64,000 bases of DNA from Streptococcus anginosus (GTDB lineage: Bacteria; Bacillota; Bacilli; Lactobacillales; Streptococcaceae), in assembly GCF_900636475.1 (NCBI RefSeq), contig NZ_LR134283.1, forward strand, positions 496,001 through 560,000, written 5' to 3'. Below the pieces are notes generated by a model that was given only the letters and a program-made list of their open reading frames with translations, had not been told where the DNA came from and did not search any database. Shown here piece after piece: positions 32,104-47,614 of this stretch. The position numbers were made by a program, and so were the translations under genes. The first letter of the stretch is position 1. Each line of letters opens with the position of its first letter.

Positions 32104-32153
32104 AAATAAGAATGGAAAGGGGCTTTTTGCTCTGTATTCTAGTAGGAGACGAG

Positions 32154-33068
32154 ATGAAAAAGTTTGTTTCTAAGATTGGACAGAACCCGTTTTTACAATC
32201 CTTTTTTAAATTTTATCAAGCATCCGAGATTGATTTGACAAGCATTGCGGTGGCATATTATTTGCTGATTTCGATTTTTCCGTTGCTATTGATTGTTGTG
32301 AATATATTGCCTTATTTTCAAATTCCGATAACAGAATTTTTGGAAGCAATGGAAGATGTTCTGCCTGAATCGCTGTATGAAGTCGTTGCAAAGGTTACCC
32401 GAAATTTGCTAACTCAGCCTTCTTCTGGCTTGTTGAGTTTTTCTATCCTTTCGGCTCTATGGGCATTTTCACAATCAATGTCATTTTTGCAAAAAGCATT
32501 TAATAAAGCTTATGGTGTTGCAAAAGATAGAGGTCTGATATCACATAGATTATTTAGTTTAGTCATTAGCTTGGGGTTGCAATTTCTCTTTGCCTTGTCT
32601 CTTTTACTGACAATGTTTGGGAGAATGTCGCTTCGCTTGCTTCATAGCTTTTGGGAGTTTGATGATCAACTATATGCCAGTTTGCAAAGAATGACCCAGC
32701 CAACTATTTACACCTTGCTGTTTCTTTCTTTACTGATGCTTTATTACTTTTTACCCAATGTAAAAATCAGGAAAATTCGCTATGTTCTGCCGGGAACGAT
32801 TTTTGTAGTTTTTACGATTGGGGTATTGTTAAATTTATTTTCCGTTTATTTGGACACTTATGTAAATCACTTAATGGATGTCCGATTTTTTAGTTCCATT
32901 TTTGTTGTCGTCGTCATGATTTGGTTTACCCTCATTGCCCAAATTATGATTATTGGGGCAATCTTAAATGCAAGTTACCAAGGATGTCACGAAAAAGAAT
33001 TTGAAACGAGACATAAACAACTGACCGCGCGACTCATCAAAAAAACAAAAAATGAAAAAAGAAGATAA
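32154..33068 (+). CDS. YihY/BrkB family membrane protein
   Basis: A 304-residue integral membrane protein with about six transmembrane helices and the family opening SIAVAYYLLISIFPLLLIVVNI. The conserved LLSFSILSALWAFSQSM and WFTLIAQIMIIGAILNA segments are visible. It was once annotated as RNase BN, which is wrong for this family. Function is unknown. I chose ATG 32154 (preceded by TAGGAGACGAG) rather than the longer frame that runs back into map. Confidence 0.88.
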   Translation: MKKFVSKIGQNPFLQSFFKFYQASEIDLTSIAVAYYLLISIFPLLLIVVNILPYFQIPITEFLEAMEDVLPESLYEVVAKVTRNLLTQPSSGLLSFSILSALWAFSQSMSFLQKAFNKAYGVAKDRGLISHRLFSLVISLGLQFLFALSLLLTMFGRMSLRLLHSFWEFDDQLYASLQRMTQPTIYTLLFLSLLMLYYFLPNVKIRKIRYVLPGTIFVVFTIGVLLNLFSVYLDTYVNHLMDVRFFSSIFVVVVMIWFTLIAQIMIIGAILNASYQGCHEKEFETRHKQLTARLIKKTKNEKRR

Positions 33069-33193: not shown

Positions 33194-33236
33194 GAAAAAA
33201 CCATCGTAAGTAAACTTTCGATGGTTAATTTTATTT
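33194..33236. terminator. Bidirectional terminator between yihY-type gene and GH94
   Basis: The stem AACCATCG/CGATGGTT (33199-33206 with 33219-33226) has six A on the left (T run for the reverse strand) and a T-rich stretch on the right. It can end both converging transcripts. Confidence 0.75.
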
Positions 33237-35648
33237 TTACAAGATTAGAGTCACGTTATTTTTTTCTAATAAAATTTCTTCGGGAAGATACGGGCTAGCC
33301 AACTCTTTCCCGTTGAGGCAGAGTCTCGTGAAGCCTGATTCTTTATGGTTAGGATTTTGGACAGTGATGTGAAGGTGTTTACCGCGGAAGTTCTTGTCCA
33401 CAATGAAGCTATCCCAATTTTTTGGAATAGCAGGACTGAGTCTCAGACCTTTCAGGTCAGGACGCAATCCAAGAATTCCTTCAACACAACCAACCATAAT
33501 GGTGGAAGCTGTTCCTGTTAACCAGTGAACGTGAGAGCGTCCGAAGTGAGGACTAGCTGGGCCTTCTGTGAATTGTCCATAGCAGTATGGCTCTAGTTGT
33601 CGAATGTCAGCTTGATCATTTTGTGCAGCAGGAGCATTTTCTATAAAATAAGTGAAGGCTCGTTCTCCTTGACCACGAAGTGCTTCGGCTAAAATCAACC
33701 AACCTTGAGATTGGGAGAAGATACCAGCGTTTTCTTTATTCCCTTGGTTGTAGATAACGGCTAGTGCTCCCTCAAAGGCATGGCCATGGTAAGGAGGATC
33801 CATGAGTACGGCACCATAAGATGTATTCAAACGATTATAAATATTGTCCATGACAAGATCAGTTTGTTCTTTGCTTGCTAAACCACTTATAACAGCCCAG
33901 CTTTGAGGGTTAAGCCAGAAATTAGCCTCTGGTGCTTGGCTTTCTCCGATGAGTTCCCCCTTTTCAGTGAAACCACGAATAAAACGATCATTATCCCAAC
34001 AGAAGTCTTGGATTTTTTGTTCCATATCAGCTTTGATCTTTTCAAGGAAGGAAAGATAATCATCGTCTTGTTTATAACTAGCGAAATCTTTGAGAATCTT
34101 CAAGGCATAGTAGAATTGCAGAGCAACAAAGGAAGATTCGCCTTGAGCACCTAAACGTAGGCAATCATTCCAGTCAGCATAAAGTCCGGCGGGCATGCCA
34201 TGTGGTCCTAAATGATCTAGGGAAAATTTGATAGCGGTCTGCAAGTGTTGGTAAACAGTAGCTTCTCCATTGTTGGCATATGGGATGACTTCATCAAGGA
34301 AGGCAATATTTCCCGTCTCTGCTATATATTTATAGATAGTTGGGAAGAGCCAGAGAGCATCATCAGCACGGTAAGCTGGGTGACCTGTTTCTTTAACATA
34401 AGAAGAATCATCAGGTGTATTTTCATGGCCGGGCTTATGAGTAAATTTAACTAGTGGCAATCCACCGCCATTATCTACTTGGGCAGATAGCATGAAGCGG
34501 ATCTTCTCGACAGCCATTTCGGGTTTGAGGTGGATAATTCCTTGGATATCTTGTACTGTATCTCGATATCCGTAACCATTTCGTAAGCCACAGTAGATGA
34601 GTGAAGCTGCACGTGACCAGATAAAGGTCATATAGCAGTTGTAAGCATTCCATGTATTAATCATAGTATTAAATTCAGGACTCGGTGTTTGAACCTGTAG
34701 GTTTATGAGGCGTTCTTCCCACTCAGAGCGTAGATCATTGACTTCTGCTTTGACTATTTCTTTAGGTTTATCATAATTTTTTAGAATGGCTTGCGCTTCT
34801 GGAGATGATTTTTCACCAAGAATAAAGACAAGAGTTTTGCTTTCGTTTGGGGCAAGCGTAACTTTACTGGCTAAAGCTCCACAGGCATTTTCATTGTAAC
34901 TTGTCAGATTGCCTAAATCCCCTGTGCTGATACCAGTAGGTTTATCATAACCGTTATAGCGACCAAGAAAAGTTTTTTTGTCACCGCAGAAGGAAGCGAC
35001 AGGATTTCCTGCTAAGCCAAAGAAACGTTCGGTTACATTTTTTTCATCAACCTGTTCATCATCGTCTAGTGTGTCTAAATTACCATGAATCTGTTGGATA
35101 AGACGGTTGTCTTTAAAGAGAGTGCGTGTGATGAAGAGTGAATATTGTAAATTGACTTGGTCTTGTTCATAGTTACCGTGATTAGTAAATTCAGCATAGC
35201 CTGTCAGAGTTAGGTTGCGGGTATCATTAGAGCGATTAGTCACTTCTAAAGCCCAAACTTCGTAACTTTGACCTTTTGGAACATAATAAGTTACTTCTGA
35301 ATGAATGCTGTCATAATCGGCCATCATTTTAGTATAGCCCATACCGTGGTGACATTCACTGTGGTAATCCGTTAAATCTTTACCAACAGGTTGCCAAGAG
35401 GCTGACCAAAATTCCTTGCTGTCATCATCTCTCAAATAGATGTAGCGACCAGGCTGATCAAAATTGTTAAAAACATAACGAAGGATACGTCCGTTGGCAC
35501 CAGACTTGGCAAAACTGTAACCGCCAGCATTGTTAGAAATAATAGCACCATATTCTGGTGAGCCGAGATAGTTGACCCAAGGTAAGGGGGTATTAGGCTT
35601 ATCAATCACATATTCTCGATTGACATCATCGAAATAACCATATTTCAT
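33237..35648 (-). CDS. GH94 disaccharide phosphorylase (cellobiose phosphorylase-like)
   Basis: An 803-residue cytoplasmic GH94 enzyme, the usual length of cellobiose or laminaribiose phosphorylase. It converts a beta-glucobiose and phosphate into glucose-1-phosphate and glucose. The N-terminus MKYGYFDDVNREYVI..TPLPWVNYLG is close to known cellobiose phosphorylases. The catalytic acid is Asp492 in YADWNDCL, as in C. gilvus CbP (D490). The C-terminal HVHWLTGTAST phosphate-site region is present. No signal peptide. It is the second gene of the reverse operon, 54 bases after the 900-residue paralogue. Beta-1,4 versus beta-1,3 specificity cannot be read from sequence by eye. Confidence 0.85.
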   Translation of the reverse strand: MKYGYFDDVNREYVIDKPNTPLPWVNYLGSPEYGAIISNNAGGYSFAKSGANGRILRYVFNNFDQPGRYIYLRDDDSKEFWSASWQPVGKDLTDYHSECHHGMGYTKMMADYDSIHSEVTYYVPKGQSYEVWALEVTNRSNDTRNLTLTGYAEFTNHGNYEQDQVNLQYSLFITRTLFKDNRLIQQIHGNLDTLDDDEQVDEKNVTERFFGLAGNPVASFCGDKKTFLGRYNGYDKPTGISTGDLGNLTSYNENACGALASKVTLAPNESKTLVFILGEKSSPEAQAILKNYDKPKEIVKAEVNDLRSEWEERLINLQVQTPSPEFNTMINTWNAYNCYMTFIWSRAASLIYCGLRNGYGYRDTVQDIQGIIHLKPEMAVEKIRFMLSAQVDNGGGLPLVKFTHKPGHENTPDDSSYVKETGHPAYRADDALWLFPTIYKYIAETGNIAFLDEVIPYANNGEATVYQHLQTAIKFSLDHLGPHGMPAGLYADWNDCLRLGAQGESSFVALQFYYALKILKDFASYKQDDDYLSFLEKIKADMEQKIQDFCWDNDRFIRGFTEKGELIGESQAPEANFWLNPQSWAVISGLASKEQTDLVMDNIYNRLNTSYGAVLMDPPYHGHAFEGALAVIYNQGNKENAGIFSQSQGWLILAEALRGQGERAFTYFIENAPAAQNDQADIRQLEPYCYGQFTEGPASPHFGRSHVHWLTGTASTIMVGCVEGILGLRPDLKGLRLSPAIPKNWDSFIVDKNFRGKHLHITVQNPNHKESGFTRLCLNGKELASPYLPEEILLEKNNVTLIL

Positions 35649-35702
35649 GAAAATCTCCTTTAAATTGTTAGATATTTATTTTACGTGTATTGAGTTATTA
35701 TC

Positions 35703-38405
35703 TTAATTTAGTGTAATAGTGATATTGTGCATGTTCTCATTATTGAGTAGTTCTAGTTGTTTTTTGGTTAAGAATACAAAAGCAGCATCTGTGATATTTA
35801 AAGGTTGATTGTCACAGTTAGCTGATGCTACAACATAATCACCGAAATCCTTATAGTGAGGATTGTTATAGGTGATATGGAAATTTTTACCTGCAAAGGG
35901 AACTACAATAGAAGTTTGGCCATTATTATCAAACTGCTCTGCCAGAAGTTTAGGATAAAGCACAAGATCTCCTGATTTTCCTTGAACTCCAAAGACTTCA
36001 GTAACCATTGTCAGCATGAACCAACTAGCAGCTCCTGTTAGATAGTGGTAAACGCCTCGACCGTCAGTTCGGAAATATTCGGGTATACCTGGATAGATGC
36101 AGCTAGTTTCAAAATTCAAAGATGTATCAGCTAGCGCTTTGAGAGCTTTCCAGCCCTTTGTAGCAAAGCCACGACGATAGAGAGCATAAGCATACATGAC
36201 AGTCATATGAGAGAAGACCGCACCGTTTTCTTTTTCGCCATAGGCAAAACCAAACATACGACCAAGATCAGTTTTAACTTCTTGAAAGTCGGTATTTAAG
36301 CGATAACCGCCAATTTCTGGGCGGTAAAGGTAATGGTCGGCGCTGGAGATAATCTTATGGATTTGATCATCGGTTGCTACATGATTCATAATTGGGAAAA
36401 CTTGTCCTGTTAGCATCATGTGGCTCTTGTCCTTATAGTAACCATCGGTAGCTCTGCCATTATTATCGTAGTAACTGTTATACCAGCCTTCTGTTTCATT
36501 GAGATCTATCCATTCTTTTTGTTGTAAATGTTGACGCAACCAAGTAGCTTTTTGAATAAGATTAAGAGCAATTTCTGACAAGCTCATTTGAACTTTGAAT
36601 CCATTGACCTTATGTTGACACTGCTTAACATAAGCATCTAAGATTTGATGTTTGCGAGCAACTTTTTCATAAATATCGGTGTCATTTTTCAGCAGAAGAC
36701 CGATTTCTTCTAAAATCTCAACAGATTTAGTTTGTGTTTTACTTTCGAGCAAGCGAATGAGTGCTGCTAATTCCATGAGATTCCCAGCATAAGCTGCGGT
36801 AAAGGCGACACTTTCACCGTTTTCGTCTGCCATATCAAGAGCATCATTCCAGTCGGCACCTCGGAGACGGTAAATATTGTGTTGACCTACTTCATAAAAT
36901 CCAGTTAAATGTTGGATGAGCAAATGTTCTAAGATACTGCCTGTGTAAATATCATTATCAGTAGATCGTTGTTTATTGCCGTAATCTTCGCTCCAAAGGT
37001 TATCAATAGCTGTCCCTCGCTTGACATGAGCGTCCTTAAAATAAGAGACTTCTTTCATAAGAATATCAATGTCGCCTGTCTGGTCAATATAGAGTTTGGT
37101 TGTTATCAATGGCCAGAGAGCATGGTCCATCCAAACACGGCTAATACCATTACGGTCAGCAAGGAATTCTCCCTCACCTTGACCGATGATAGTAGCGTTC
37201 GTTCCATCAAGACGGACACCTTTGTAATTATTAATAATCATATTTCTAACTTCAGTAGGTTCCATGAGAAGTAGAGAGAGGCAATCTTGCCATAAGTCAC
37301 GCCATCCGCGGCCCCCACGTCCATAATCGTGGTGAGGCAAGAAGGAACAACCAAAAATACGTCGTAAAAATGGTTGAAAGCATACCCATTTCATAAAATT
37401 ATCGAACTCAGCTTCTTTGGTGTGGAAGTCAACTCCGACCTTATTTAGCCAATAGGATTTAGTGACTGTCAGACTTTGTTGAACTGTTTTTAGGTTACGA
37501 TATTTTTCAGAAATAGTATCAATATTTTTTTCGTCGTTTTCAATTCCCATAAGAATGATGAAACTCTTGCTTTGACCAGCTTCTAAAGTAAAAGGGGCAA
37601 AACGAAAGGCTCCCATGGCTTCTCGACCATTAATTTTAGCATGAGCAGATATGCCTTTTTCATTGTTGAAAATTGCAGCTGGCTGGATGAAACTTCCACT
37701 TTTGCCAATAAAAGATTCAACAGTTGGATAGAAGGCTTGAGGTACTTGTCCAGATTCATCAAAACCAAGGACATAATAGATCTGATGATTGACGCGATGA
37801 CCGCGTTCATCAAAAGACATAGTTGGGCAAACCAGAACACCGGATTTAGTTGTCTTGATACGGTGTAGCATAGAGGTGACATTACGGTGATCTCTAATGT
37901 TGTCTGCACTACGTCCAAAAATTGGAATAGCTGCATAGGCAGTAAGCGTTTGAGTATCATCAGAAGTGTTTGTGATGTCTACTTGCATGATTTCAACATT
38001 TTCATTATGAGGAATGAAAGACGTTACCTTTGCTTTTAAAGATAGATTTTTGAGATGACGCTCTAGTTTCTGCCACATAAATCCAGCTGTTAGCTGGCTT
38101 TCCTCTTGATCAATGCTAAATTTTTGTGCTTCTTGCTTAGCAGAATTTCCTGTTACTGAAGCGACTTCTCCATTCTGATTTTTAATCCAAAAATTTCGAG
38201 TGGAGCGGTTGTTATGTAGATTATCAATACTGATTGGCTCTAATAAGAAGGTTTCTTGATCAATTTTAGCATCGCCTCCCAGATTAGGACTAATTGCACT
38301 TTTTAATCCAACTTCTGAAGCAAGTGGGAAGTACAAGGAATTGATATTTTCAGGTTGATGAATGGTAAATTCTCCAGTATCATTAATAAATTTCAATTGC
38401 TTCAT
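35703..38405 (-). CDS. GH94 phosphorylase, longer oligosaccharide type
   Basis: A 900-residue GH94/GH36-type enzyme without signal peptide. The catalytic Asp518 lies in RGADWNDALDMA. HHDYGRGGRGWRDLWQDCL precedes it and is the substrate-site loop. YHYLTGAASWFMLTMVTEV corresponds to the phosphate-binding end of GH94. The N-terminal beta-sandwich is longer than in the 803-residue paralogue, so a cellodextrin- or oligoglucan-type chain length is plausible. It is the first gene of the reverse GH94 operon, divergent from the ABC importer. Exact linkage specificity is undetermined. Confidence 0.8.
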   Translation of the reverse strand: MKQLKFINDTGEFTIHQPENINSLYFPLASEVGLKSAISPNLGGDAKIDQETFLLEPISIDNLHNNRSTRNFWIKNQNGEVASVTGNSAKQEAQKFSIDQEESQLTAGFMWQKLERHLKNLSLKAKVTSFIPHNENVEIMQVDITNTSDDTQTLTAYAAIPIFGRSADNIRDHRNVTSMLHRIKTTKSGVLVCPTMSFDERGHRVNHQIYYVLGFDESGQVPQAFYPTVESFIGKSGSFIQPAAIFNNEKGISAHAKINGREAMGAFRFAPFTLEAGQSKSFIILMGIENDEKNIDTISEKYRNLKTVQQSLTVTKSYWLNKVGVDFHTKEAEFDNFMKWVCFQPFLRRIFGCSFLPHHDYGRGGRGWRDLWQDCLSLLLMEPTEVRNMIINNYKGVRLDGTNATIIGQGEGEFLADRNGISRVWMDHALWPLITTKLYIDQTGDIDILMKEVSYFKDAHVKRGTAIDNLWSEDYGNKQRSTDNDIYTGSILEHLLIQHLTGFYEVGQHNIYRLRGADWNDALDMADENGESVAFTAAYAGNLMELAALIRLLESKTQTKSVEILEEIGLLLKNDTDIYEKVARKHQILDAYVKQCQHKVNGFKVQMSLSEIALNLIQKATWLRQHLQQKEWIDLNETEGWYNSYYDNNGRATDGYYKDKSHMMLTGQVFPIMNHVATDDQIHKIISSADHYLYRPEIGGYRLNTDFQEVKTDLGRMFGFAYGEKENGAVFSHMTVMYAYALYRRGFATKGWKALKALADTSLNFETSCIYPGIPEYFRTDGRGVYHYLTGAASWFMLTMVTEVFGVQGKSGDLVLYPKLLAEQFDNNGQTSIVVPFAGKNFHITYNNPHYKDFGDYVVASANCDNQPLNITDAAFVFLTKKQLELLNNENMHNITITLN

Positions 38406-38808
38406 GATTTCTCCTTTTCAATGATGTTTTTATACTTTTTATTTTAGAGAAAAGGTTTTCAATAAAAAATAAAAAAGGAGAGAAAAATATCATAAATATG
38501 ACATGAAATTAATTATTCAATGAACTGCCAAATTTTTAGAGATAGAAACTAACTGAGATTAATGACAATCAGGCGCTTTGCATCGCTGATGATATAGAAA
38601 AAATTCCCCATTTATTAGAATATTTTTTAAAAAATATTTCCATTAAATACCTTTTTTTATTTAAGAATAGAGAAATAAAAAAAGTAAAATGAGGACAGAA
38701 ATTTGATATTTTTTGAAAAAATATAATATAATGACTTCGATTTTCAGAGTATAATGCAAGTACAAAATACATGAGGGAAAGCCTCAGACAAATAAAGGAG
38801 AACTTTTT
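38406..38808. promoter_or_regulatory. Divergent control region with cre-like site
   Basis: 403 bases without a gene separate the GH94 operon from the ABC importer. AGAAAAGGTTTTCA (38448-38461) differs from a perfect cre palindrome at two positions and sits 43 bases upstream of the GH94 start. For the importer, -35 TTGATA (38703-38708) and -10 TATAAT (38727-38732) are 18 bases apart; a second TATAAT occurs at 38750. The rest is very AT-rich and probably holds the AraC regulator's target, which I cannot identify by eye. Confidence 0.5.
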
Positions 38809-40176
38809 ATGAACAAAAAAGTAAGCGCTTTTATCGCGATTGCTCTTGCGGCTGGAACAATGGTTGGTTGTTCTGCAAAATCCAATTCTTCAACATCTGG
38901 AAAAGAAGGGAAAATTATTAATATCTATTCTTGGAACGATGAATTCCGTCAACGTGTAGAAGCAGTTTATCCAGAAGTTAAAGAAACTTCAAAAGATGGT
39001 ACCATCACAAAACTTAAAGATGGTACGGAGATTCATTGGATTATTAATCCTAATCAAGACGGTGTCTATCAACAAAAGCTAGATGAAGCTTTATTGAAAC
39101 AAAAATCAGCATCTGCTGATGATAAAATTGACCTTTTCTTATCTGAAACAGACTATGTTAATAAGTATTCTTCTAAAAAAGCGAACGCTGCTATGCCATT
39201 GAAAGATTTGGGCATCGATCCTAAGAAAGACTTAGCTGACCAATACAATTTTACAAAAGTTACTGCTTCTGACGAAGATGGTGTTCAACGTGGCTCAACA
39301 TGGCAAACTTGTCCAGGTGTCCTTGTTTACCGTCGTGATATTGCTAAGGCTGTTTTTGGAACAGATGATCCAAAAATTATTGGCGAAAAGGTTAAAGATT
39401 GGGCTACTATGAAAGCCACGTCTAAAGAATTGCAAGATAAAGGTTATTTGACTTTTGCTTCTTATGCAGATACTTTCCGTCTATATGGTAATAATATTAA
39501 GAAACCTTGGGTTAAAGCTGGTGAAACAACTATCAATGTTGGACCAGAAGTGATGAATTGGGTGAAAGATTCTAAAGAATGGCTTGACGCTGGATACTTC
39601 AATAAAACTGTTAAAGGACAATGGACAGACGATTGGAACAAAGCTATGAGTTCTAAATCAAATGTTTTTGCTTTCTTATTCCCTGCTTGGGGTATTGACT
39701 TTACCTTGAAACCAAACTGGGACGGTGCTAAAGGTACATGGGCTGTGACGAATCCACCCCAAGAATATAATTGGGGCGGATCTTACATCCATGGTGCAGA
39801 AGGAACTGATAATCCAAAACACGTCAAAGATATTATTTTAGCTTTAACGGGTAATAAAGAAAACCTTCTGAAGATTTCTAAAGACTATTCAGACTTTACT
39901 AACACCAAGAGCGGTATGGAAGAAGCGGCAAAAGATGACAAATTTGCTTCAGATTTTCTTGGCGGACAAAATCCTTTTAAATACTTCGCACCAGTTGCTG
40001 AAAAGATTAAAATGGCACCATTATCAGCTTATGATCAAGGTTGCGTCGAAGTTTTCCAAAATTCATTCAATGACTATCTTCAAGGAAAAGTAAGCTTTGA
40101 TAAAGCCAAATCAAATTTTGAAACAGCCATTAAAGAACGTTATCCAGAAATTACAGATATTAAATGGCCAAAATAG
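38809..40176 (+). CDS. ABC sugar-binding lipoprotein (beta-glucan oligosaccharide candidate)
   Basis: A 455-residue extracellular solute-binding protein of the family 1 type. A lipoprotein signal (residues 1-20) ends at MVGC with Cys21 for lipid attachment, then a Ser-rich tether. The mature part begins IINIYSWNDEFRQRV and contains WQTCPGVLVYRRD and AWGIDFT segments with several Trp suited to stacking on sugars. A ribosome binding site AAAGGAG precedes it. The two permeases follow, separated by a hairpin. Ligand inferred from the locus: oligosaccharides from mixed-linkage beta-glucan. Confidence 0.85.
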   Translation: MNKKVSAFIAIALAAGTMVGCSAKSNSSTSGKEGKIINIYSWNDEFRQRVEAVYPEVKETSKDGTITKLKDGTEIHWIINPNQDGVYQQKLDEALLKQKSASADDKIDLFLSETDYVNKYSSKKANAAMPLKDLGIDPKKDLADQYNFTKVTASDEDGVQRGSTWQTCPGVLVYRRDIAKAVFGTDDPKIIGEKVKDWATMKATSKELQDKGYLTFASYADTFRLYGNNIKKPWVKAGETTINVGPEVMNWVKDSKEWLDAGYFNKTVKGQWTDDWNKAMSSKSNVFAFLFPAWGIDFTLKPNWDGAKGTWAVTNPPQEYNWGGSYIHGAEGTDNPKHVKDIILALTGNKENLLKISKDYSDFTNTKSGMEEAAKDDKFASDFLGGQNPFKYFAPVAEKIKMAPLSAYDQGCVEVFQNSFNDYLQGKVSFDKAKSNFETAIKERYPEITDIKWPK

Positions 40177-40182
40177 AAAATA

Positions 40183-40214
40183 CTATCCGCAGTGTTGATA
40201 GACATCACGGATAG
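40183..40214 (+). promoter_or_regulatory. Hairpin between binding protein and permease genes
   Basis: CTATCCG (40183-40189) pairs with CGGATAG (40208-40214). No T run follows, so it is more likely an mRNA-stabilising/processing hairpin than a full terminator. This would keep binding protein in excess over the permeases, as known for other ABC importers. Confidence 0.5.
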
Positions 40215-40231
40215 GCAAAGGAGTAAGAAAG

Positions 40232-41173
40232 ATGAGACAAAAACGCAAACACATCAATTATGGAAAATGGGGATATATTTTCATACTCCCCTTCTTCCTG
40301 AGTTTCTTTATTTTCTCTTTTGTTCCGCTAATTGACACGGTGCGTTATAGCTTTTATGAATATTACCAATCAGGAATTAGAGAAATTGGGCCGACTTTTG
40401 TAGGATTGGGAAATTATATCAACTTACTTAAATCAGATATGTTGAGATATGCAGGGAATACTATGATTTTGTGGCTGATTGGTTTTATTCCGCAAATCGT
40501 TATCGCTTTGCTTTTAGCCAATTGGTTTGTAGATGCACGCTTGAAAATTCGTGGTAAACAATTTTTCAAGGTGGTCATTTATCTTCCAAACCTAATTATG
40601 GCGTCAGCATTTGCTATGCTTTTCTTTACACTTTTCTCAACTAACGGACCTATCAATTCTATTTTGGAAACTCTTGGATGGATTAAAGAACCAATTGACT
40701 TTATGGGCACAGCTTTTGGAACACGTTCATTGATTGGCGTTATGAACTTCTTGATGTGGTTCGGTAATACAACTATCATGCTTATGGCAGCCATTATGGG
40801 AATAAATCCAGATATTTTTGAAGCTGCTGAAATTGATGGTTGTAACAGTCGTCAGCGTTTCTTTTATATCACTCTTCCTATGATTCGACCAATTCTTGCC
40901 TATACGTTAATTACGTCTATTATAGGTGGGCTTCAAATGTTTGATGTACCGCAAATTTTGACCAATGGTCAAGGGGCACCAGACCGTACGTCTACGACAC
41001 TCATTATGTTTTTGAATAATCATTTAAAGAGTAAAAACTATGGTATGGCGGGTGCATTGTCAGTTTACCTATTTGTTGTGAGTGCTATTCTTTGTTGGTT
41101 TGTCTACAAGATGACTAATAATGAGCTAAAAATGACAAAACATAAAATGAAACAAAAGGCTAGAAAGGCATAG
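40232..41173 (+). CDS. ABC sugar permease, MalF/UgpA type
   Basis: A 313-residue inner membrane permease with six transmembrane helices. The first begins WGYIFILPFFLSFFIF. The cytoplasmic EAA loop that contacts the ATPase reads EAAEIDGCNSRQRFFYITLP. It pairs with the next permease and the lipoprotein upstream. No ATP-binding gene is present in the locus. Confidence 0.9.
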   Translation: MRQKRKHINYGKWGYIFILPFFLSFFIFSFVPLIDTVRYSFYEYYQSGIREIGPTFVGLGNYINLLKSDMLRYAGNTMILWLIGFIPQIVIALLLANWFVDARLKIRGKQFFKVVIYLPNLIMASAFAMLFFTLFSTNGPINSILETLGWIKEPIDFMGTAFGTRSLIGVMNFLMWFGNTTIMLMAAIMGINPDIFEAAEIDGCNSRQRFFYITLPMIRPILAYTLITSIIGGLQMFDVPQILTNGQGAPDRTSTTLIMFLNNHLKSKNYGMAGALSVYLFVVSAILCWFVYKMTNNELKMTKHKMKQKARKA

Positions 41174-41177
41174 TGAG

Positions 41178-42032
41178 GTGATTACGATGTCAACAAAAAT
41201 ACAAAATCGACTACGCATCATTGTGGCACACTTCGTATTGATAACTTTATCTTTTATGTGCCTCTTCTTTTTCTACATTTTAATAATCAATGCAACTCAT
41301 TCACATGCCGAGTTACAAAAAGGCTTTTCAGCTTTACCGGGAAGTTCTTTATTTAGTAATCTTTCAAAAGTTGCTAACGATGGCAGTTTCCCAATGCTTC
41401 GAGGCATTCTCAATAGTTTAATTATTTCTGGTTGTACAGCAGCTATCTGTACTTACTTTTCAGCACTAACTGCTTACGGACTTTATGTCTATGATTTCAA
41501 ATTAAAGAAAATTGCCTTTACCTTTATTTTGGCAATCCTAGTTATGCCAACTCAAGTTACATCAATGGGTTTCCTTCGTCTGATTACTAATATGGGAATG
41601 TATGACAGTTTGTTACCTTTAATTATTCCAAGTATTGCATCGCCAGCTGTTTTCTATTTCATGTACAGTTACTTGCAAGCTTCTCTACCGGTTTCTTTAG
41701 TAGAAGCTGCAAGGATCGATGGTTCTAGCGAATTTCGCACCTTTAATACGATCGTTCTTCCCATCATGAAACCAGCTATTGCTGTTCAGGCCATTTTTAC
41801 TTTTGTTGGTTCGTGGAATAACTATTTCATTCCAGCTTTGGTTATCCAATCAAAATCCAAGATGACAGTACCAATTCTTATTGCAACTTTACGTGGTGCT
41901 GACTATATGAACTTTGACATGGGCAAAATTTATACAATGATTTTAGTAGCCATTGTTCCAATCATTATTGTTTATCTCTTTCTTTCAAAATATATCATTG
42001 CCGGCGTTACTCTTGGTGGTGTCAAAGAGTAA
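41178..42032 (+). CDS. ABC sugar permease, MalG/UgpE type
   Basis: A 284-residue permease, partner of the preceding gene and 4 bases downstream of it. Six helices are predicted, and the EAA loop reads EAARIDGSSEFRTFNTIVLP. A typical short C-terminus ends GVTLGGVKE. With no cognate ATPase nearby, it must use a shared one, as many streptococcal sugar importers do with MsmK. An in-frame ATG at 41187 is an alternative start. Confidence 0.9.
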   Translation: MITMSTKIQNRLRIIVAHFVLITLSFMCLFFFYILIINATHSHAELQKGFSALPGSSLFSNLSKVANDGSFPMLRGILNSLIISGCTAAICTYFSALTAYGLYVYDFKLKKIAFTFILAILVMPTQVTSMGFLRLITNMGMYDSLLPLIIPSIASPAVFYFMYSYLQASLPVSLVEAARIDGSSEFRTFNTIVLPIMKPAIAVQAIFTFVGSWNNYFIPALVIQSKSKMTVPILIATLRGADYMNFDMGKIYTMILVAIVPIIIVYLFLSKYIIAGVTLGGVKE

Positions 42033-42099
42033 TGGTACTTTTGTAATATTTGTTTAATTGACTTTAATATTATCACTTAATTAAATATGAGGATTTTTT

Positions 42100-43446
42100 A
42101 TGACTAAGAAAACAGTTTTAAAATATATGTGTTACGCAGCGGTTGTATGTAGTTTTCAAGCAGGTTTAGTAGTGGCTTCCGCAGATGGGAGAGCAACAGA
42201 AACTACTCAGTCAGATATCAATGTAACGACATCTACAGATTCTACATTCAATTCAAAGCAATTAGTGACTTCTGAAACTACAAGCGAGGAAACCTCAACT
42301 AGTAAAGATGCTTCTCCTACTAATTCGGAATCAAAAGATTCTCAAACTAACGACATACCTGATTCAGAAACAGACACTAACCACGTTAAAGCTACAGATG
42401 CTGTTGGTGTAGCAGTACAAAGTGATGCCACGGAACCTACTGAAAAACCTCAGTCAGAAGTAGCTGCCAAAAAGGTTCTACCTATTCAGTATCATACAGA
42501 TTTTGATATTTATGACGATACGACAATGGAACGATCAGATTGGTCAAATGGGAATCCATTTAACTGTCGTTGGGTGCCAGAAAATACTCGTGTTAAAGAT
42601 GGAAAATTGACTTTAACGCTAAATGAGAATGGTAAGGGAGAATATAATTCAGGAGAATGGCGTACACGGCAGTTTTTTGGTTTTGGAAAATTTGAAGTAC
42701 GCATGAAAGCCATTAAAAATCCTGGTGTAGTTAGCTCTTTCTTTACCTATACTGGTCCAAGTGACGATAATCCATGGGATGAAATTGATATTGAATTTTT
42801 AGGAAAAGATACAACGAAAGTACAGTTCAACTATTATACTAACGGTCAAGGCAATCACGAATACATGCATGATTTGGGATTCGATGCGTCTGAGGATTTT
42901 CATACCTACGGTTTTGAATGGCAGGAAAATAAAATCATTTGGTATGTTGATGGTAAGGCGGTTTATACAGCAACTGATAATATTCCGACAACACCAGGGA
43001 AAATCATGATGAATGCTTGGCCGGGTATTGGGGTAGATGACTGGTTACAGCCTTTCGATGGTAAGACCCCATTGGTAGCAACTTATGATTGGGTTTTTTA
43101 CAAAAAAACTACAGCTAAAGAAGAGGATACTCCTAAAATAGAGGATGATGTTAAAATACCTAATGATAATGATGATGATCAAACATCAGTTGAACCAGAG
43201 AAAAATGAAACAGTTCCTATGCAAACAGACAAATCAGAACAAAGAAAAAATACGAATGATATTCAACAAGTGGCCACTAAAAAAGCTATTAATGTAGATC
43301 AAGCTGCACAACAAACAGAAGAGAGGAGCATAGTTGGTAAGCTTCCTAAGACAGGTACAAAAGACAGTGCCTTAATTAGCTTAATTGGACTTGTCCTTAT
43401 TATTTTAAGCAATATGGTATTGCTTTTTCGGAAAAATTATCATTAA
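42100..43446 (+). CDS. Cell-wall-anchored GH16 licheninase
   Basis: A 448-residue surface enzyme. It has a signal peptide (about residues 1-28), a Ser/Thr/Asp-rich spacer (30-125), a GH16 catalytic domain (about 130-345), an acidic and Gln-rich spacer, then LPKTG (415-419), a hydrophobic segment and a basic tail for sortase. The catalytic motif EIDIE has nucleophile Glu228, Asp230 and acid/base Glu232. The text [19 protein letters not shown] is nearly that of Bacillus lichenases, which cut beta-1,4 bonds next to beta-1,3 bonds in lichenan and cereal beta-glucan. It follows the importer genes and probably has its own promoter (TTGACT upstream). Confidence 0.92.
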
Positions 43447-43522
43447 AATATTTGAATAAAAATGTGAACTTCTTCAATTTATTTATTGAAGTAGCTCTTT
43501 ATTAAAAAATAGTGAAGAAAGC

Positions 43523-44194
43523 ATGAAGTCATTAACAATGAAAAATAAACTAACTCATTATGAAACAAAATTTGAACAATATGAAGCTAGTCATATGGAA
43601 CTACGAAACGGAGCAAATGGAGACATGTTTAATTGTATCTGGAAGCCAGAAAATGTGATTTTTAAAGATGGACTTATGTCTCTAAAGATTGATAGTGATG
43701 GCCAAGGCGGTTATACTGGAGGGGAATGGCGTACTAGAGATTATTTCAGCTATGGTTTTTATCAAGTCTCAATGAAACCGATTAAAAATCCAGGTGTTAT
43801 TACGTCTTTCTTTACTTACACAGGTCCAAGTGACGAAACAAAATGGGATGAAATTGACATTGAATTTTTGGGTAAAGATACTACAAAAGTTCAGTTTAAC
43901 TATTTTACAGATGGCAAAGGAGGACATGAATATCTATTTGATCTTGGGTATGATGCTTCTGAGAATTTTCATACTTATGGGTTTGATTGGCAAGAAGCTA
44001 ACATTACTTGGTATGTAGATGGCAAAGCTGTTTACACAGTAACTGAAAATATTCCAGAAACTCCTGGAAAAATTATGATGAATGCTTGGCCGGGTATTGG
44101 CGTAGACACTTGGTTAGATGCCTATAATGGGCAAACGCCGCTTTGTGGTTATTATAATTGGATTACTTACGATGAAGCAAAAGAGATTAAGTAA
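43523..44194 (+). CDS. GH16 licheninase without signal peptide or anchor
   Basis: A 223-residue, single-domain GH16 protein closely similar to the catalytic domain of the preceding gene. The catalytic EIDIE is intact (Glu110, Asp112, Glu114), as is the [13 protein letters not shown] segment. The N-terminus [20 protein letters not shown] is polar and has no hydrophobic core, and there is no LPxTG, so the product is predicted to be cytoplasmic. An in-frame ATG at 43538 is an alternative start that does not change this. It may cut imported longer oligosaccharides or be a duplicated domain that lost its secretion signals. Confidence 0.85.
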
Positions 44195-44200
44195 GTTTCA

Positions 44201-44226
44201 AAATCTCCAAATTTGGAGATTTTTTC
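44201..44226 (+). terminator. Terminator after second lichenase
   Basis: AAATCTCCAAATTTGGAGATTT is a perfect palindrome followed by a T run. It sits 6 bases after the stop codon. Confidence 0.9.
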
Positions 44227-44357
44227 TTATTTATAATAAGGAAACAACAGATGTGGTATAATAAAGTTAAATATCACTTTTTTAGAAATAGCATTTTGAA
44301 CTCTAATTTGTTGCAAAATAGCTAAGTGTTAACCTATATTTTATAGTTGGAGGATTT

Positions 44358-45125
44358 ATGAATTACAAAGATGAATGGAAGTTATTTGCTGCAAGCGATA
44401 ATGCTGATGAAATAGAGCATCGCCCATTAACCGAAGAGTTTCTCTTTTATCAAGCTGTTGCTAATGGAGATATTGAAACCGTTCGTAAAAATTGTGAACA
44501 AGAAAGGTTTACACAAAAAGAAGGTGTTGGGAAATTATCGCGAAACCCTGTAACTAACTTAAAATATCATTTCGTTATCACAACCGCTCTAGTTACACGG
44601 ATGTGTGGACAAAATGGTATGGAACTTGAGCAAGCCTTTCGCCTTAGTGATTTTTATATTCAAAAATTGGATGATCTCCATACAGTTCAAGAAGTCCAAA
44701 ATTTGCATGATGAAATGGTTATTGATTATACCGAAAAAATGCGTCGTAGTATTCAAAAAGATATAACTTCTAAGCACATTGCTGCTTGTAAAGATTATAT
44801 TTACTGTCATATTAAAGAACGGATTACTGTCGAACAATTGGCCTTAGAATACGGTGTTTCATCAAGTTACTTATCACGCTTGTTTAAGAAAGAAGTTGGT
44901 ATTTCAGTGAGTTCCTATGTCAGAAATAAAAAAATGGAAGTAGCTAAAGATTTATTGAAATTTAGCGACTATTCTATGATTGAAATTGCAAACCACCTGT
45001 CATTTTCATCACAAAGTCACTTTATCCAACAATTTAAGGAAACAGTAGGTATTACACCTAAAAAATATCGTGATACGCATCATACACTCAAATGGGATAA
45101 AAATGTCATATCTGAAGAGACTTAG
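44358..45125 (+). CDS. AraC family transcriptional regulator
   Basis: A 255-residue regulator. Residues 1-150 form a helical domain with no recognised ligand fold; it lacks the cupin seen in AraC itself. Residues about 155-250 are a classical double helix-turn-helix: ITVEQLALEYGVSSSYLSRLFKKEVGISV and SMIEIANHLSFSSQSHFIQQFKE, then TVGITPKKYRD. It is probably the activator of the beta-glucan genes upstream, from position only. TATAAT occurs about 100 bases upstream of the start. Confidence 0.88.
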   Translation: MNYKDEWKLFAASDNADEIEHRPLTEEFLFYQAVANGDIETVRKNCEQERFTQKEGVGKLSRNPVTNLKYHFVITTALVTRMCGQNGMELEQAFRLSDFYIQKLDDLHTVQEVQNLHDEMVIDYTEKMRRSIQKDITSKHIAACKDYIYCHIKERITVEQLALEYGVSSSYLSRLFKKEVGISVSSYVRNKKMEVAKDLLKFSDYSMIEIANHLSFSSQSHFIQQFKETVGITPKKYRDTHHTLKWDKNVISEET

Positions 45126-45292: not shown

Positions 45293-45742
45293 ATGATGAT
45301 TTTGCGAGAGATTGGTATTATCGCTCGAGCGTTGGATTCAATGGCGAATATTGAATTTCGCCATGTTGATTTGGCCAAAGGGCAGTACCTTTATTTGGTT
45401 CGTATCGTAGAAAGTCCCGGTATTATTCAAGAAGAGCTTTCTGATTTGCTGAAAGTTGATCGGTCAACTGTTGCTCGCTCCGTCAAAAAATTAGAGAGTA
45501 AAGGTTTGATTGAAAGAAGAAGTGCAGCTGGAAATTTAAAAAATAAAGAGCTTTTTGCGACAGACACAGGAAAAAAACTTTATCCGTTTATCTTAGCAGA
45601 GCACACTTATTCTGAGCAGCAGGCTTTGACAGGATTTTCCAAAGAAGACGCTCAATTGTTAGAAGACATGTTAGAAAAGGTGCGACAGAATATTACTGAT
45701 GATTGGGAATTGGTTAAAAAAGGACAAAAAAGAAATTATTGA
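45293..45742 (+). CDS. MarR family transcriptional regulator
   Basis: A 149-residue winged-helix repressor. The recognition helices fall in GIIQEELSDLLKVDRSTVARSVKKLESKGLIERR (about residues 43-77), followed by the wing. The ligand is unknown. Two ATGs are adjacent (45293 and 45296). It is the first gene of a two-gene operon with a B3/B4-domain protein and has the palindrome over its own promoter, so autoregulation is likely. Confidence 0.88.
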   Translation: MMILREIGIIARALDSMANIEFRHVDLAKGQYLYLVRIVESPGIIQEELSDLLKVDRSTVARSVKKLESKGLIERRSAAGNLKNKELFATDTGKKLYPFILAEHTYSEQQALTGFSKEDAQLLEDMLEKVRQNITDDWELVKKGQKRNY

Positions 45743-45752
45743 GAGGTGTAAA

Positions 45753-46460
45753 ATGAAAGTCACAGTTGAAAATGAATTTTGGGAATTATTCCCTCAAGCG
45801 CAAATTAGCATTATGGTTGTTAAAGGTTTGGATAATAGCGTTGACGAAAGCAAAGACCCTTATTTTAAATCTTTGTTAGATAAGGGAAGCAAGCGTGCAG
45901 AAGATTTTATCGTAGATGAAATCTTTACGCAAAATGACGTGATTCAAGAATGGCGTGGTGCTTTTAGTAAGTTTAAAACTAAAAAAGGTGCGCGTTCTTC
46001 TATTGAAGCTCTTTTAAAAAGGGTAAGTCAAGGTCGTGAGTTCAATCCAATCAATCCATTGGTGGATATTTATAACAGTGTGTCACTTTCCTATGCTGTT
46101 CCTTGTGGTGGTGAAGATATTGCTAAGATTCAAGGAGGCTTGCATCTTGGAAAAGCGCAAGGAGGCGAACCTTTCTTTCCACTTGGTGCAGAGACAGACG
46201 CACCAGCTCTTCCAGAGGAAATTATTTATTATGATGATGAAGGAGCTGTTTGTCGTTGTTTTAACTGGAGGGAAGCGCAACGGACAATGCTGACTGAAGG
46301 CACAACGGATGCAGTATTAGTCATCGAAGCAATCAATGAAGACCACGCTAAACGCGCGCAAGCAGCTATGCAGGAATTGCAAAGTTTAGTTGAAGATTAT
46401 TTTGGAGTCAAAGGAGAAATCACTCATCTAACAATTGATAATCCAAGTGTAGACATTTAA
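45753..46460 (+). CDS. B3/B4 tRNA-binding domain protein
   Basis: A 235-residue protein carrying the B3/B4 domain otherwise found in phenylalanyl-tRNA synthetase beta subunit. Visible text includes INPLVDIYNSVSLSYAVPCGGED and LGAETDAPALPEEIIYYDDEGAVCRCFNWREAQRT, the signature of stand-alone B3/B4 proteins. These may edit mischarged tRNA or bind a small ligand; the role is not established. I chose ATG 45753 behind GAGAGGTG; the longer frame overlaps the MarR gene. It is co-transcribed with that gene. Confidence 0.82.
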   Translation: MKVTVENEFWELFPQAQISIMVVKGLDNSVDESKDPYFKSLLDKGSKRAEDFIVDEIFTQNDVIQEWRGAFSKFKTKKGARSSIEALLKRVSQGREFNPINPLVDIYNSVSLSYAVPCGGEDIAKIQGGLHLGKAQGGEPFFPLGAETDAPALPEEIIYYDDEGAVCRCFNWREAQRTMLTEGTTDAVLVIEAINEDHAKRAQAAMQELQSLVEDYFGVKGEITHLTIDNPSVDI

Positions 46461-46970: not shown

Positions 46971-47003
46971 AGATTTAGTCTATCATATTTGCAAAAAATG
47001 TGC

Positions 47004-47009
47004 TATACT
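47004..47009 (+). promoter_or_regulatory. Extended -10 promoter of queT
   Basis: TGCTATACT is an extended -10 element located 32 bases before the preQ1-II aptamer. No good -35 is seen, as is usual for extended -10 promoters. Confidence 0.5.
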
Positions 47010-47040
47010 TGAAAAGCTGTATTCGTTTTGTCAATACAGC

Positions 47041-47099
47041 CCTTGGCGCTTAGTTCCCTTTCGTCAAGCATATTACACGCGGTTTAGCCGCTAAAGGAG
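47041..47099 (+). promoter_or_regulatory. preQ1-II riboswitch
   Basis: The text CTTGGCGCTTAGTTCCCTTT, then CGTCAAGCATATTACACGCG and GTTTAGCCGCTAAAGGAG, is the COG4708/preQ1-II motif seen upstream of streptococcal queT genes. The terminal AAAGGAG is the ribosome binding site and is sequestered on preQ1 binding. An extra hairpin GCTGTATT/AATACAGC immediately precedes it (about 47016-47040). Confidence 0.93.
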
Positions 47100-47104
47100 A
47101 AAAT

Positions 47105-47614
47105 ATGGAAAAAATTACTGTTCGTGATATGGCTCAGATTGCTCTCGTTGCTGCGATTTACGTTGCTCTGACAATGACACCGCCCCTGAATGCTATTAGC
47201 TACGGTGCCTACCAATTTCGGATTTCTGAAATGATGAACTTTATGGCTTTTTATAAACCAAAGTACATCATCGGAGTCACGTTGGGGTGTATGATTGCAA
47301 ATTTATTTAGTTTTGGAATCATCGATGTCTTTGTCGGTGGTGGTTCAACCTTGGTCTTTTTGAGCTTAGGTGTGTATTTCTTTAGAAAATACATGAATGA
47401 ATACTTGTTTAATGGACTAATCAATAAAGCTTTCTTTTATTTTGCGATTTTCTTTTCACTTTCTATGGTGACCATTGCAGCTGAATTATACATTGTTGCT
47501 AAAGCACCGTTTTTCTTGACCTGGTTTACGACAGCAGTAGGAGAGTTTGCTTCACTCATCATTGGTGGAATTTTAATGGACAAGCTAAATAAGCGGATTG
47601 ATTTAGGAAAATAA
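47105..47614 (+). CDS. queT: Queuosine precursor ECF transporter S component
   Basis: A 169-residue integral membrane protein of the QueT family (DUF988/COG4708). It binds a queuosine precursor such as preQ1 and passes it through a shared ECF energy module. About five to six helices are visible, with the conserved RDMAQIALVAAIYVALTM start. The preQ1-II riboswitch in the leader supports substrate and feedback control at translation. Confidence 0.93.
   Translation: MEKITVRDMAQIALVAAIYVALTMTPPLNAISYGAYQFRISEMMNFMAFYKPKYIIGVTLGCMIANLFSFGIIDVFVGGGSTLVFLSLGVYFFRKYMNEYLFNGLINKAFFYFAIFFSLSMVTIAAELYIVAKAPFFLTWFTTAVGEFASLIIGGILMDKLNKRIDLGK

What the first reader, a model, noticed from the sequence alone, without database searches (positions are those of the whole stretch)
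33237..45125. Self-contained mixed-linkage beta-glucan utilisation locus in a Streptococcus
Within 12 kb there are a sortase-anchored GH16 lichenase, a signal-less lichenase, a lipoprotein plus two permeases, two GH94 phosphorylases and an AraC-type regulator, and nothing unrelated. GH16 enzymes with this EIDIE text cut (1,3-1,4)-beta-glucan to tri- and tetrasaccharides. GH94 enzymes conserve energy by making glucose-1-phosphate. Together they make a complete outside-to-inside route for cereal or lichen beta-glucan, which is not the usual streptococcal PTS route for beta-glucosides. Genes are seen; pathway and substrate are inferred.
Basis: partly seen in the sequence, partly recalled or inferred. 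Interest (0 to 1): 0.78.

Follow-up and report, generated by a model that had tools for sequence, protein, structure and literature searches.

The report
Streptococcal cereal beta-glucan digestion locus
A cluster of genes probably lets some animal-gut streptococci cut cereal beta-glucan outside the cell, import the pieces and split them inside so that most of the glucose comes out already phosphorylated; the set, switch included, looks borrowed from gut clostridia.

Summary
In detail: 33237-45125 holds two GH94 genes, a lipoprotein with two permeases, two GH16 genes and an AraC-type regulator. The 803-aa GH94 is the counterpart of Blautia producta BpGH94MLG (PDB 8BOU), reported to phosphorolyse G4G3G, G4G4G3G and cellotriose but not the disaccharides tested. 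The 900-aa GH94 is of the laminaribiose-phosphorylase type (6GGY). In series they should turn a mixed-linkage tetrasaccharide into three glucose-1-phosphates and one glucose. 'Self-contained' is slightly too strong: the likely ATPase is encoded elsewhere.

New here: an operator-like motif (AAAATATCA-N6-TGNC) faces both divergent operons, and its degenerate pattern has no other exact match in the 1.95-Mb genome. It recurs in 38 of 38 comparable regions outside Streptococcus and upstream of several GH16 genes, tying phosphorylases and lichenases into one regulon. Streptococcal copies form one clade among Lachnospiraceae sequences, at several chromosomal sites. The second GH16 lacks a signal peptide in 7 of 7 species read. 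Activities, induction and substrate are inferred. Verdict: a new variant of the known Gram-positive mixed-linkage-glucan locus.

The parts
33199..33226 (.). Inverted repeat AACCATCG...CGATGGTT with T-rich tails on both strands; likely bidirectional terminator between the MLGP end and the flanking yihY-like gene
   Evidence: Read by eye from the sequence; not reported by the terminator scan
33237..35648 (-). GH94, 803 aa, 'MLGP': counterpart of BpGH94MLG (PDB 8BOU); predicted beta-1,4 phosphorylase of mixed-linkage oligosaccharides; predicted acid D495, Y633
   Evidence: 8BOU identity confirmed
35703..38405 (-). GH94, 900 aa, 'LBP': laminaribiose-phosphorylase type; WND acid D521, RD motif
38484..38502 (+). 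Operator-like site AAAATATCATAAATATGAC, upstream of the LBP-MLGP operon
38694..38712 (-). Operator-like site AAAATATCAAATTTCTGTC, upstream of the SBP operon
38750..38755 (+). Candidate -10 box TATAAT of the SBP operon (in a stretch largely conserved among 7 streptococci)
   Evidence: alignment; inference
38809..40176 (+). Lipoprotein solute-binding protein (lipobox read by eye); predicted fold nearest to 5IXP, CebE-cellotriose (8BFY) and other oligosaccharide binders
40232..41173 (+). ABC permease 1
41178..42032 (+). ABC permease 2
42100..43446 (+). GH16a: BglS-type lichenase with N-terminal leader (by eye) and LPXTG anchor
43523..44194 (+). GH16b: BglS-type lichenase without signal peptide (by eye)
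44200..44223 (+). Terminator-like hairpin closing the SBP-to-GH16b operon
44358..45125 (+). AraC-type regulator with an all-helical N-terminal part in the model; candidate binder of the two sites

Best explanation
The locus is a mixed-linkage (1,3;1,4)-beta-glucan utilisation regulon. Step 1: the cell-wall-anchored GH16a cuts the polysaccharide at the beta-1,4 bond that follows a beta-1,3 bond, releasing G4G3G and G4G4G3G. Step 2: the lipoprotein and two permeases, powered by a shared MalK/UgpC-type (MsmK-like) ATPase encoded elsewhere, import them. [quoted passage not shown] Step 4: LBP splits laminaribiose into glucose-1-phosphate and glucose. A tetrasaccharide thus yields three glucose-1-phosphates and one glucose. 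The signal-less GH16b probably trims longer imported oligosaccharides in the cytosol. The AraC-type protein probably binds the two AAAATATCA-N6-TGNC sites and switches on both divergent operons. The cassette (importer, two phosphorylases, regulator, operators) was probably acquired from a clostridial gut bacterium and joined in streptococci to BglS-type lichenases. Shown: genes, homology, motif conservation, phylogeny, context. Inferred: activities, substrate, induction, regulator binding, direction of transfer, cytosolic role of GH16b.
For: MLGP best PDB match is 8BOU (1375 bits over its whole length), which is BpGH94MLG, measured active on cellotriose, G4G3G and G4G4G3G and inactive on cellobiose, laminaribiose and laminaritriose (PMC10318527). 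LBP best match is 6GGY (945 bits, E 4e-283; next best 76 bits, E 2e-20). Both GH16 pass the BglS cut-off. SBP is 77% identical to that of Blautia schinkii L106; BpSBPMLG of B. producta, presumably its orthologue (sequence not compared), binds G4G3G at about 1 uM and its deletion slows growth on barley glucan. 69 of 80 loci pair MLGP with LBP. The genome has no GH3 match, the enzyme class B. producta uses on laminaribiose. Both motif sites are in the window and in 12 of 12 further streptococcal clusters that hold the region; 38 of 38 divergent regions outside Streptococcus have a best site above 30 of 30 shuffles; the degenerate pattern has no other exact match in the genome. In 1.38 Mb of 78 loci 126 of 143 sites lie within 450 bases upstream of a cassette gene; the reversed matrix gives 9 hits. 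Sites also precede GH16-CBM4 genes in clostridia and the further GH16 beside MLGP in 6 of 6 streptococci that have one there. Streptococcal MLGPs form one clade, SH-aLRT 100.
Against: No enzyme, growth or expression data for this organism. BpGH94MLG is also good on cellotriose and BpSBPMLG binds cellotetraose best, so cello-oligosaccharides could be co-substrates. The PsLBP 'gate' hairpin was not located in LBP. LBP is split between frames in G169 and cut in G037, and GH16a is mostly deleted in G096, so the full set is not kept everywhere. Seven GH1 genes in the genome might also deal with laminaribiose. 11 of 80 loci lack LBP, 5 of them with 10 kb on both sides. A GH16-like match was seen in only 8 of the 78 loci outside Streptococcus (tblastn), and 2 of these 8 have no site in front of it. 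Eight of 16 loci without a detected AraC still carry a site, and 6 of 62 with AraC do not. In several of the 38 regions only one of the two sites scores well. AraC binding is untested. The tree is unrooted and its rows were picked by similarity.
Confidence: 0.85

Rival explanations
1. The cassette serves cello-oligosaccharides in general (from cellulose or xyloglucan breakdown by neighbours), and mixed-linkage oligosaccharides only incidentally.
For: BpGH94MLG cleaves cellotriose and BpSBPMLG binds cellotetraose with the lowest Kd; the nearest solved binders include a cellotriose protein.
Against: The co-conserved LBP-type GH94, in 69 of 80 loci, has no evident use on pure beta-1,4 glucans; the locus itself carries two BglS-type lichenases; the motif also precedes GH16 genes.
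Confidence: 0.12
2. The locus targets beta-1,3-glucans (laminarin, callose, paramylon, yeast glucan).
For: LBP-type GH94 acts on laminaribiose in Paenibacillus and Acholeplasma (passages).
Against: The MLGP relative BpGH94MLG is inactive on laminaribiose and laminaritriose; both GH16 match the BglS lichenase model above its cut-off. GH149 and GH161 genes were not searched for.
Confidence: 0.05
3. The 803-aa GH94 is a chitobiose phosphorylase, as the PDB name of 8BOU and the 1V7V match suggest.
For: Molecule name of 8BOU; second-best PDB match is a chitobiose phosphorylase, E 2e-159.
Against: The paper on 8BOU shows beta-1,4-glucan phosphorylase activity and points to Tyr in place of the Val of the chitobiose enzyme; the window protein has Tyr633 there.
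Confidence: 0.02
4. GH16b is not a cytosolic enzyme in function: it is a duplicated domain that reaches the outside only by lysis or is on its way out.
For: It lies directly behind the anchored GH16a and no export signal can be read in it; no paper on an intracellular bacterial lichenase was found with the three phrases.
Against: No readable signal peptide in 7 of 7 species and no internal stops, with pN/pS 0.05 to 0.27 over 21 pairs, and kept where GH16a is mostly deleted (G096).
Confidence: 0.4
5. The cassette was ancestral in streptococci and lost in most, rather than acquired.
For: Thirteen streptococcal MLGP sequences form one clade; some copies are decaying (G037, G169).
Against: Only 14 of 284 Streptococcus genomes have it; in a 295-genome sample of the order, which includes Streptococcus genomes (how many was not counted), only the window's own genome and G061 have a close match; three flank groups among 8 clusters compared; the yihY-like and B3/4 genes that flank the window's cassette lie within 4 kb of each other in 11 of 35 other streptococci.
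Confidence: 0.12

Closest known systems
Blautia producta mixed-linkage glucan locus bp1313-bp1318 (gpPUL; PMC10318527)
   Same: GH16 endoglucanase, GH94 of the same kind, AraC regulator, SBP and permeases; widespread in Lachnospiraceae
   Different: Here an LBP-type GH94 is added, two BglS-type lichenases (one LPXTG-anchored, one signal-less) stand in place of the GH16 with four CBM4 modules, no GH3 match is found in the genome, and the host is a Streptococcus. In the sections of that paper that I read, laminaribiose phosphorylase is named only as a structural homologue, not as a gene of the locus, and no operator motif is given.
Laminaribiose phosphorylase PsLBP of Paenibacillus sp. YM-1 (PDB 6GGY, 6GH2, 6GH3)
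   Same: Full-length GH94 match, WND and RD motifs
   Different: Sits beside an oligosaccharide phosphorylase in a mixed-linkage glucan cassette; gate hairpin not checked
Bacillus-type lichenase BglS (GH16; for example PDB 3WVJ, 1GBG)
   Same: Catalytic domain and EIDIE motif
   Different: One copy wall-anchored by LPXTG, the other without signal peptide
Extracellular beta-(1,3-1,4)-glucanase of Streptococcus bovis JB1 (Ekinci et al. 1997, seen only as a reference entry in PMC5902542)
   Same: Secreted lichenase in a gut streptococcus
   Different: I saw only the title, which names the enzyme; no uptake or phosphorolysis route was seen by me

Membership tests
Gram-positive mixed-linkage glucan locus (B. 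producta type) | GH16 endo-glucanase, cell-surface bound | tested here: met
   GH16a passes BglS and LPXTG cut-offs; different GH16 architecture (no CBM4 reported by Pfam)
Gram-positive mixed-linkage glucan locus (B. producta type) | GH94 of the BpGH94MLG kind | tested here: met
   Best match 8BOU, 1375 bits, full length
Gram-positive mixed-linkage glucan locus (B. producta type) | SBP plus permeases and an AraC-type regulator in the locus | tested here: met
Gram-positive mixed-linkage glucan locus (B. producta type) | Induction by, and growth on, barley glucan | not testable with these tools
   needs culture
GH94 laminaribiose phosphorylase | Full-length homology to PsLBP well above other GH94 types | tested here: met
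   945 bits against 76 for the next best PDB sequence
GH94 laminaribiose phosphorylase | WND acid and RD donor motif | tested here: met
   D521 in ADWNDA; GWRDLW (motifs from passages of PMC6771811)
GH94 laminaribiose phosphorylase | Beta-hairpin gate limiting substrates to disaccharides | not tested
   structure paper not held; LBP not modelled
GH94 laminaribiose phosphorylase | Phosphorolysis of laminaribiose | not testable with these tools
   needs assay
Chitobiose phosphorylase | Val at the position of ChBP V631 | tested here: not met
   Tyr633 (criterion)
GH16 BglS lichenase | Curated model score and EIDIE motif | tested here: met
   338.7 and 330.1 against 300 bits; motif positions
Sortase-anchored surface protein (GH16a) | C-terminal LPXTG anchor | tested here: met
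   TIGR01167 25.2 against 15.9 bits; presence of sortase not tested
MsmK-dependent CUT1 importer | No ATPase gene in the locus but a MalK/UgpC-type ATPase elsewhere | tested here: met
   NF008653 481 against 432 bits; the partnership itself is inferred and the names MsmK and CUT1 are recalled

The most novel reading that the evidence does not exclude
A portable, regulator-plus-operator 'mixed-linkage glucan regulon' moved from clostridia into streptococci and was there rebuilt into a two-compartment, fully phosphorolytic pathway: lichenases on both sides of the membrane, then two linkage-specific phosphorylases in series, so that every imported oligosaccharide yields all but one of its glucoses as glucose-1-phosphate, with no beta-glucosidase needed.
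Probability: 0.5. Interest if true: 0.62.

Novelty: new variant of a known kind. Interest (0 to 1): 0.5.

Why it matters
It gives a precise, testable route from cereal fibre to glycolysis in streptococci whose named carriers include horse and pig species (hosts partly recalled), a group usually linked to starch and PTS sugars. It predicts a partner enzyme (laminaribiose phosphorylase) for the many clostridial loci of which B. producta is the studied case, and a short operator-like sequence with which members of this regulon can be looked for in other genomes. Motif and second phosphorylase together may help to recognise mixed-linkage-glucan users among unannotated gut bacteria.

Tried and rejected
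Catabolite-repression (cre) sites: a degenerate cre pattern gave 19 hits in the window against 20.6 expected, so nothing was concluded. Sigma-70-like promoters were not enriched over shuffles (50 against 44.9). Chitobiose phosphorylase was considered because of the PDB name and rejected. A GH3 beta-glucosidase as the laminaribiose enzyme was rejected for this genome: no PF00933 match, while 10 of 14 control genomes match. AraC N-terminus: the model is all-helical, mean pLDDT 84.0 but pTM 0.49, so the relation of its two parts is uncertain; the best solved matches cover mainly the DNA-binding part, so the signal it senses stays unknown. VIA-align and Foldseek only place the SBP among oligosaccharide binders and cannot name its sugar. 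Literature: in the listings of searches I saw no paper whose title or abstract start describes this streptococcal locus, the MLGP-LBP pairing, the motif or a bacterial cytosolic lichenase; several listings were capped (34: 15 of 145; 35: 15 of 117; 85: 10 of 22; 12: 20 of 22), no search was made for the motif letters, and the library lacks most subscription papers. The species of the window could not be named.

The motif matrix was trained on sites from 7 streptococci; streptococcal confirmations outside the training set are G152, G217, G168, G169, G176 and G227, of which G168 and G169 are near kin of training species and share some site letters (G230 is the same S. porci sequence as a training one). 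The AraC gene was seen in 10 of the 13 streptococcal clusters (partial in G217); in G152, G176 and G227 my stretch ended before the place where it would be expected. The tree used 91 rows; G227 (71% identity) and the broken G037 copy were not in it. Of eight GH16-like hits in loci outside Streptococcus, six have a site of 13 bits or more within 700 bp upstream; L042 and L079 have none; L063 has two weak ones (14.8 and 15.3), the latter counted also for LBP; L114 shares its region with a divergent AraC gene; L105 was found from the site side. Third-GH16 distances were measured to the first matched codon, not to the start codon. GH3 was looked for in 13 streptococcal stretches, six of them only 5.4 kb long.
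Full report
What is there. Between 33237 and 45125 it holds, on the minus strand, two GH94 genes in the order LBP-MLGP (54 bases apart), and on the plus strand a lipoprotein SBP, two permeases, a wall-anchored GH16a, a signal-less GH16b and an AraC-type gene. The two operons diverge from a 403-base region (38406-38808). A terminator-like hairpin at 44200-44223 follows GH16b, and an inverted repeat at 33199-33226, read by eye, follows MLGP.

The two phosphorylases. MLGP's best solved relative by far is 8BOU (1375 bits, next 535), which the B. producta paper names as BpGH94MLG. I read sections 8, 9, 10, 11, 13 and 27 of that paper and the abstract and passages of others. That enzyme cleaves cellotriose, G4G3G and G4G4G3G, not cellobiose, laminaribiose or laminaritriose; [quoted passage not shown] The window protein keeps the acid (D495) and the tyrosine (Y633) which that paper contrasts with the valine of chitobiose phosphorylase. 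LBP's best solved relative is PsLBP 6GGY, 945 bits against 76 for the next. Lichenases of this type leave oligosaccharides with beta-1,4 bonds at the non-reducing side and one beta-1,3 bond at the reducing end (established knowledge; product names as in PMC10318527). A beta-1,4 phosphorylase that stops at laminaribiose, followed by a laminaribiose phosphorylase, is therefore the pair one would want. B. producta is reported to use GH3 enzymes on such disaccharides. The window genome has no GH3 match (10 of 14 control genomes match) and 8 GH1 matches in 7 genes, one of them in two pieces.

Conserved neighbourhood. Of the 11 without, 5 have 10 kb on both sides (two Lachnospiraceae, three Treponema). 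Forty of the 80 (38 outside Streptococcus, plus the two streptococci) show the divergent SBP | LBP order. A GH3 relative is present in 38 of 80 loci, one of them at only 33% identity, and in none of 13 streptococcal stretches; in four clostridial loci checked by Pfam it lies beside permease 2. So the clostridial cassette is importer, two phosphorylases, regulator and often GH3; the streptococcal one has lichenases and no GH3.

A shared operator-like motif. Aligning the divergent region of seven streptococci showed one motif, AAAATAYCA-N6-TG[A/T][C/T], twice per region in opposite orientation, one copy facing each operon. The window copies are at 38484-38502(+) and 38694-38712(-). In the whole genome these are the only exact matches of AAAATAYCANNNWTNTGNC; eleven others have one mismatch, and the backward control has one hit at up to one mismatch. 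All 38 divergent regions outside Streptococcus contain a site whose score exceeds 30 of 30 shuffles, though in some only one of the two copies scores well. In 78 loci outside Streptococcus (1,378,366 bases) 143 sites score 15 bits or more, 126 of them within 450 bases upstream of a cassette gene, also where the gene order differs; the reversed matrix gives 9. Sites are found in 56 of 62 loci with an AraC relative of 40% identity or more and in 8 of 16 without. In streptococci both sites are present in the window and in 12 of 12 further clusters that hold the region. Six streptococci have a further GH16 beside MLGP, and all six carry a site upstream of it; in four of them that GH16 has a readable leader, one has a stop in the leader and one is shortened. 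Outside Streptococcus, large proteins with GH16 and CBM4 domains, as described for BpGH16MLG, have sites 85-169 bases upstream in L066, L085, L087, L105, L113 and L114, and more weakly in L063; L042 and L079 have none. Leaders were read by eye in all of these but L105; in L114 the region is shared with a divergent AraC gene. This is evidence, independent of enzyme similarity, that phosphorylases, importer and GH16 belong to one regulon. The regulator's second HTH keeps FSSQS in 26 of 26 sequences, which fits a fixed site; binding itself is inferred.

The transporter. The SBP alignment (40 sequences, identity to the window 42-83%) gave a confident model (pLDDT 88.7, pTM 0.85). Its nearest solved folds are 5IXP, then CebE with cellotriose and others including beta-1,2-gluco-oligosaccharide binders. 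BpSBPMLG is reported to bind cellotetraose (0.75 uM), G4G3G (1.0 uM), cellotriose (1.7 uM) and G4G4G3G (5.1 uM); its sequence was not compared here. The locus lacks an ATPase; a MalK/UgpC-type one (NF008653, 481 against a cut-off of 432 bits) is at G000:C1:1862662-1863792.

The signal-less lichenase. GH16b starts at or near the catalytic domain in 7 of 7 species read, has no internal stops and shows pN/pS 0.05-0.27 over 21 pairs, many with saturated synonymous sites. It is retained in G096, where GH16a is largely deleted. A cytosolic role, cutting longer imported oligosaccharides, is my inference; a search for three phrases found no paper on such an enzyme (the one paper listed concerns protein secretion in a cyanobacterium).

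Distribution and origin. MLGP occurs in 14 of 284 Streptococcus genomes: 13 full-length, one broken (G037). In a 147-genome subset MLGP and LBP occur in the same 7 genomes. LBP is split between frames in G169 (decay or sequencing error) and partial in G037. In a 295-genome sample of the order, Streptococcus included, only the window's own genome and G061 have a close match; the best other by E-value is 28% identical. The 13 streptococcal MLGP rows of the tree are one clade (SH-aLRT 100) among Lachnospiraceae, Oscillospiraceae and other clostridial rows (unrooted, rows picked by similarity). Flanks of 8 clusters compared fall into three groups: G122, G061, G096 and G037; G130, S. porci and S. 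plurextorum; the window. In the window the cassette separates a yihY-like gene from a B3/4-domain gene by 12.6 kb; in 11 of 35 other Streptococcus genomes these two genes are 0.1-3.7 kb apart in the same orientation, and in the other 24 they are far apart, on different contigs or the B3/4 gene was not found. Acquisition from a clostridial gut bacterium and later moves within the genus is the simplest reading; direction is inferred.

Known and new. Lichenase in gut streptococci is known (Ekinci et al. 1997, seen as a reference in PMC5902542), and the mixed-linkage glucan locus of B. producta and its spread in Lachnospiraceae are known. In the listings of searches (open library only, some listings capped) I did not see the LBP partner, the motif, the signal-less lichenase or the streptococcal version. 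I therefore call it a new variant of a known kind.

Confidence. Mixed-linkage glucan as main substrate 0.85; MLGP activity 0.9; LBP activity 0.85; AraC as binder of the motif 0.75; cytosolic lichenase role 0.5; horizontal origin 0.85.

Noticed in passing
window 46999-47107: PreQ1-II riboswitch (89.7 bits) running into the start of the ORF 47105-47614, probably a queuosine-precursor transporter (QueT, name recalled).
   Followed up: no
window 32151-33068 and 45699-46460: The yihY-like gene and the B3/4-domain gene on either side of the cassette lie 0.1-3.7 kb apart in 11 of 35 other Streptococcus genomes, so the insertion point is visible.
   Followed up: yes
L136 15956-16579, L137 15758-16387, L138 15092-15721, L164 15567-16190, L165 3908-4537, L140 14753-15349: A further GH16 lichenase beside MLGP, with its own operator-like site in 6 of 6; leader readable in four, stop in the leader of G096, shortened in G037. 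Not found in the window genome, which has two GH16 matches only.
   Followed up: partly
L140 (G037), L165 (G169), L138 (G096): Decaying copies of the locus: MLGP and LBP broken in G037, LBP split between two frames in G169, GH16a mostly deleted in G096.
   Followed up: partly
L161 (G227): A more distant streptococcal version (MLGP 71%, LBP 58% identity) near genes that also neighbour the window's copy (queT, gtrA, yihY, metAP, murA), with both operator-like sites.
   Followed up: partly
L085 2793-3767: A periplasmic-binding-protein-like gene (PF13407) preceded by an operator-like site that is nearly palindromic; possible further regulon member.
   Followed up: no
PDB 8BOU: The molecule name 'N,N'-diacetylchitobiose phosphorylase' does not fit the activity reported for it; annotation by best PDB hit would mislead.
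   Followed up: yes
protein P0190: A lichenase listed for the anaerobic fungus Anaeromyces sp. W-98 is 61% identical to GH16b, which may reflect transfer between bacteria and gut fungi.
   Followed up: no
G000:C1:1256256-1257696: A GH1 gene lies in two pieces, one with a stop inside the match.
   Followed up: no
window 44358-45125: The AraC-type regulator has an all-helical N-terminal part in the model, not a beta-barrel sugar pocket; what it senses is unknown.
   Followed up: partly
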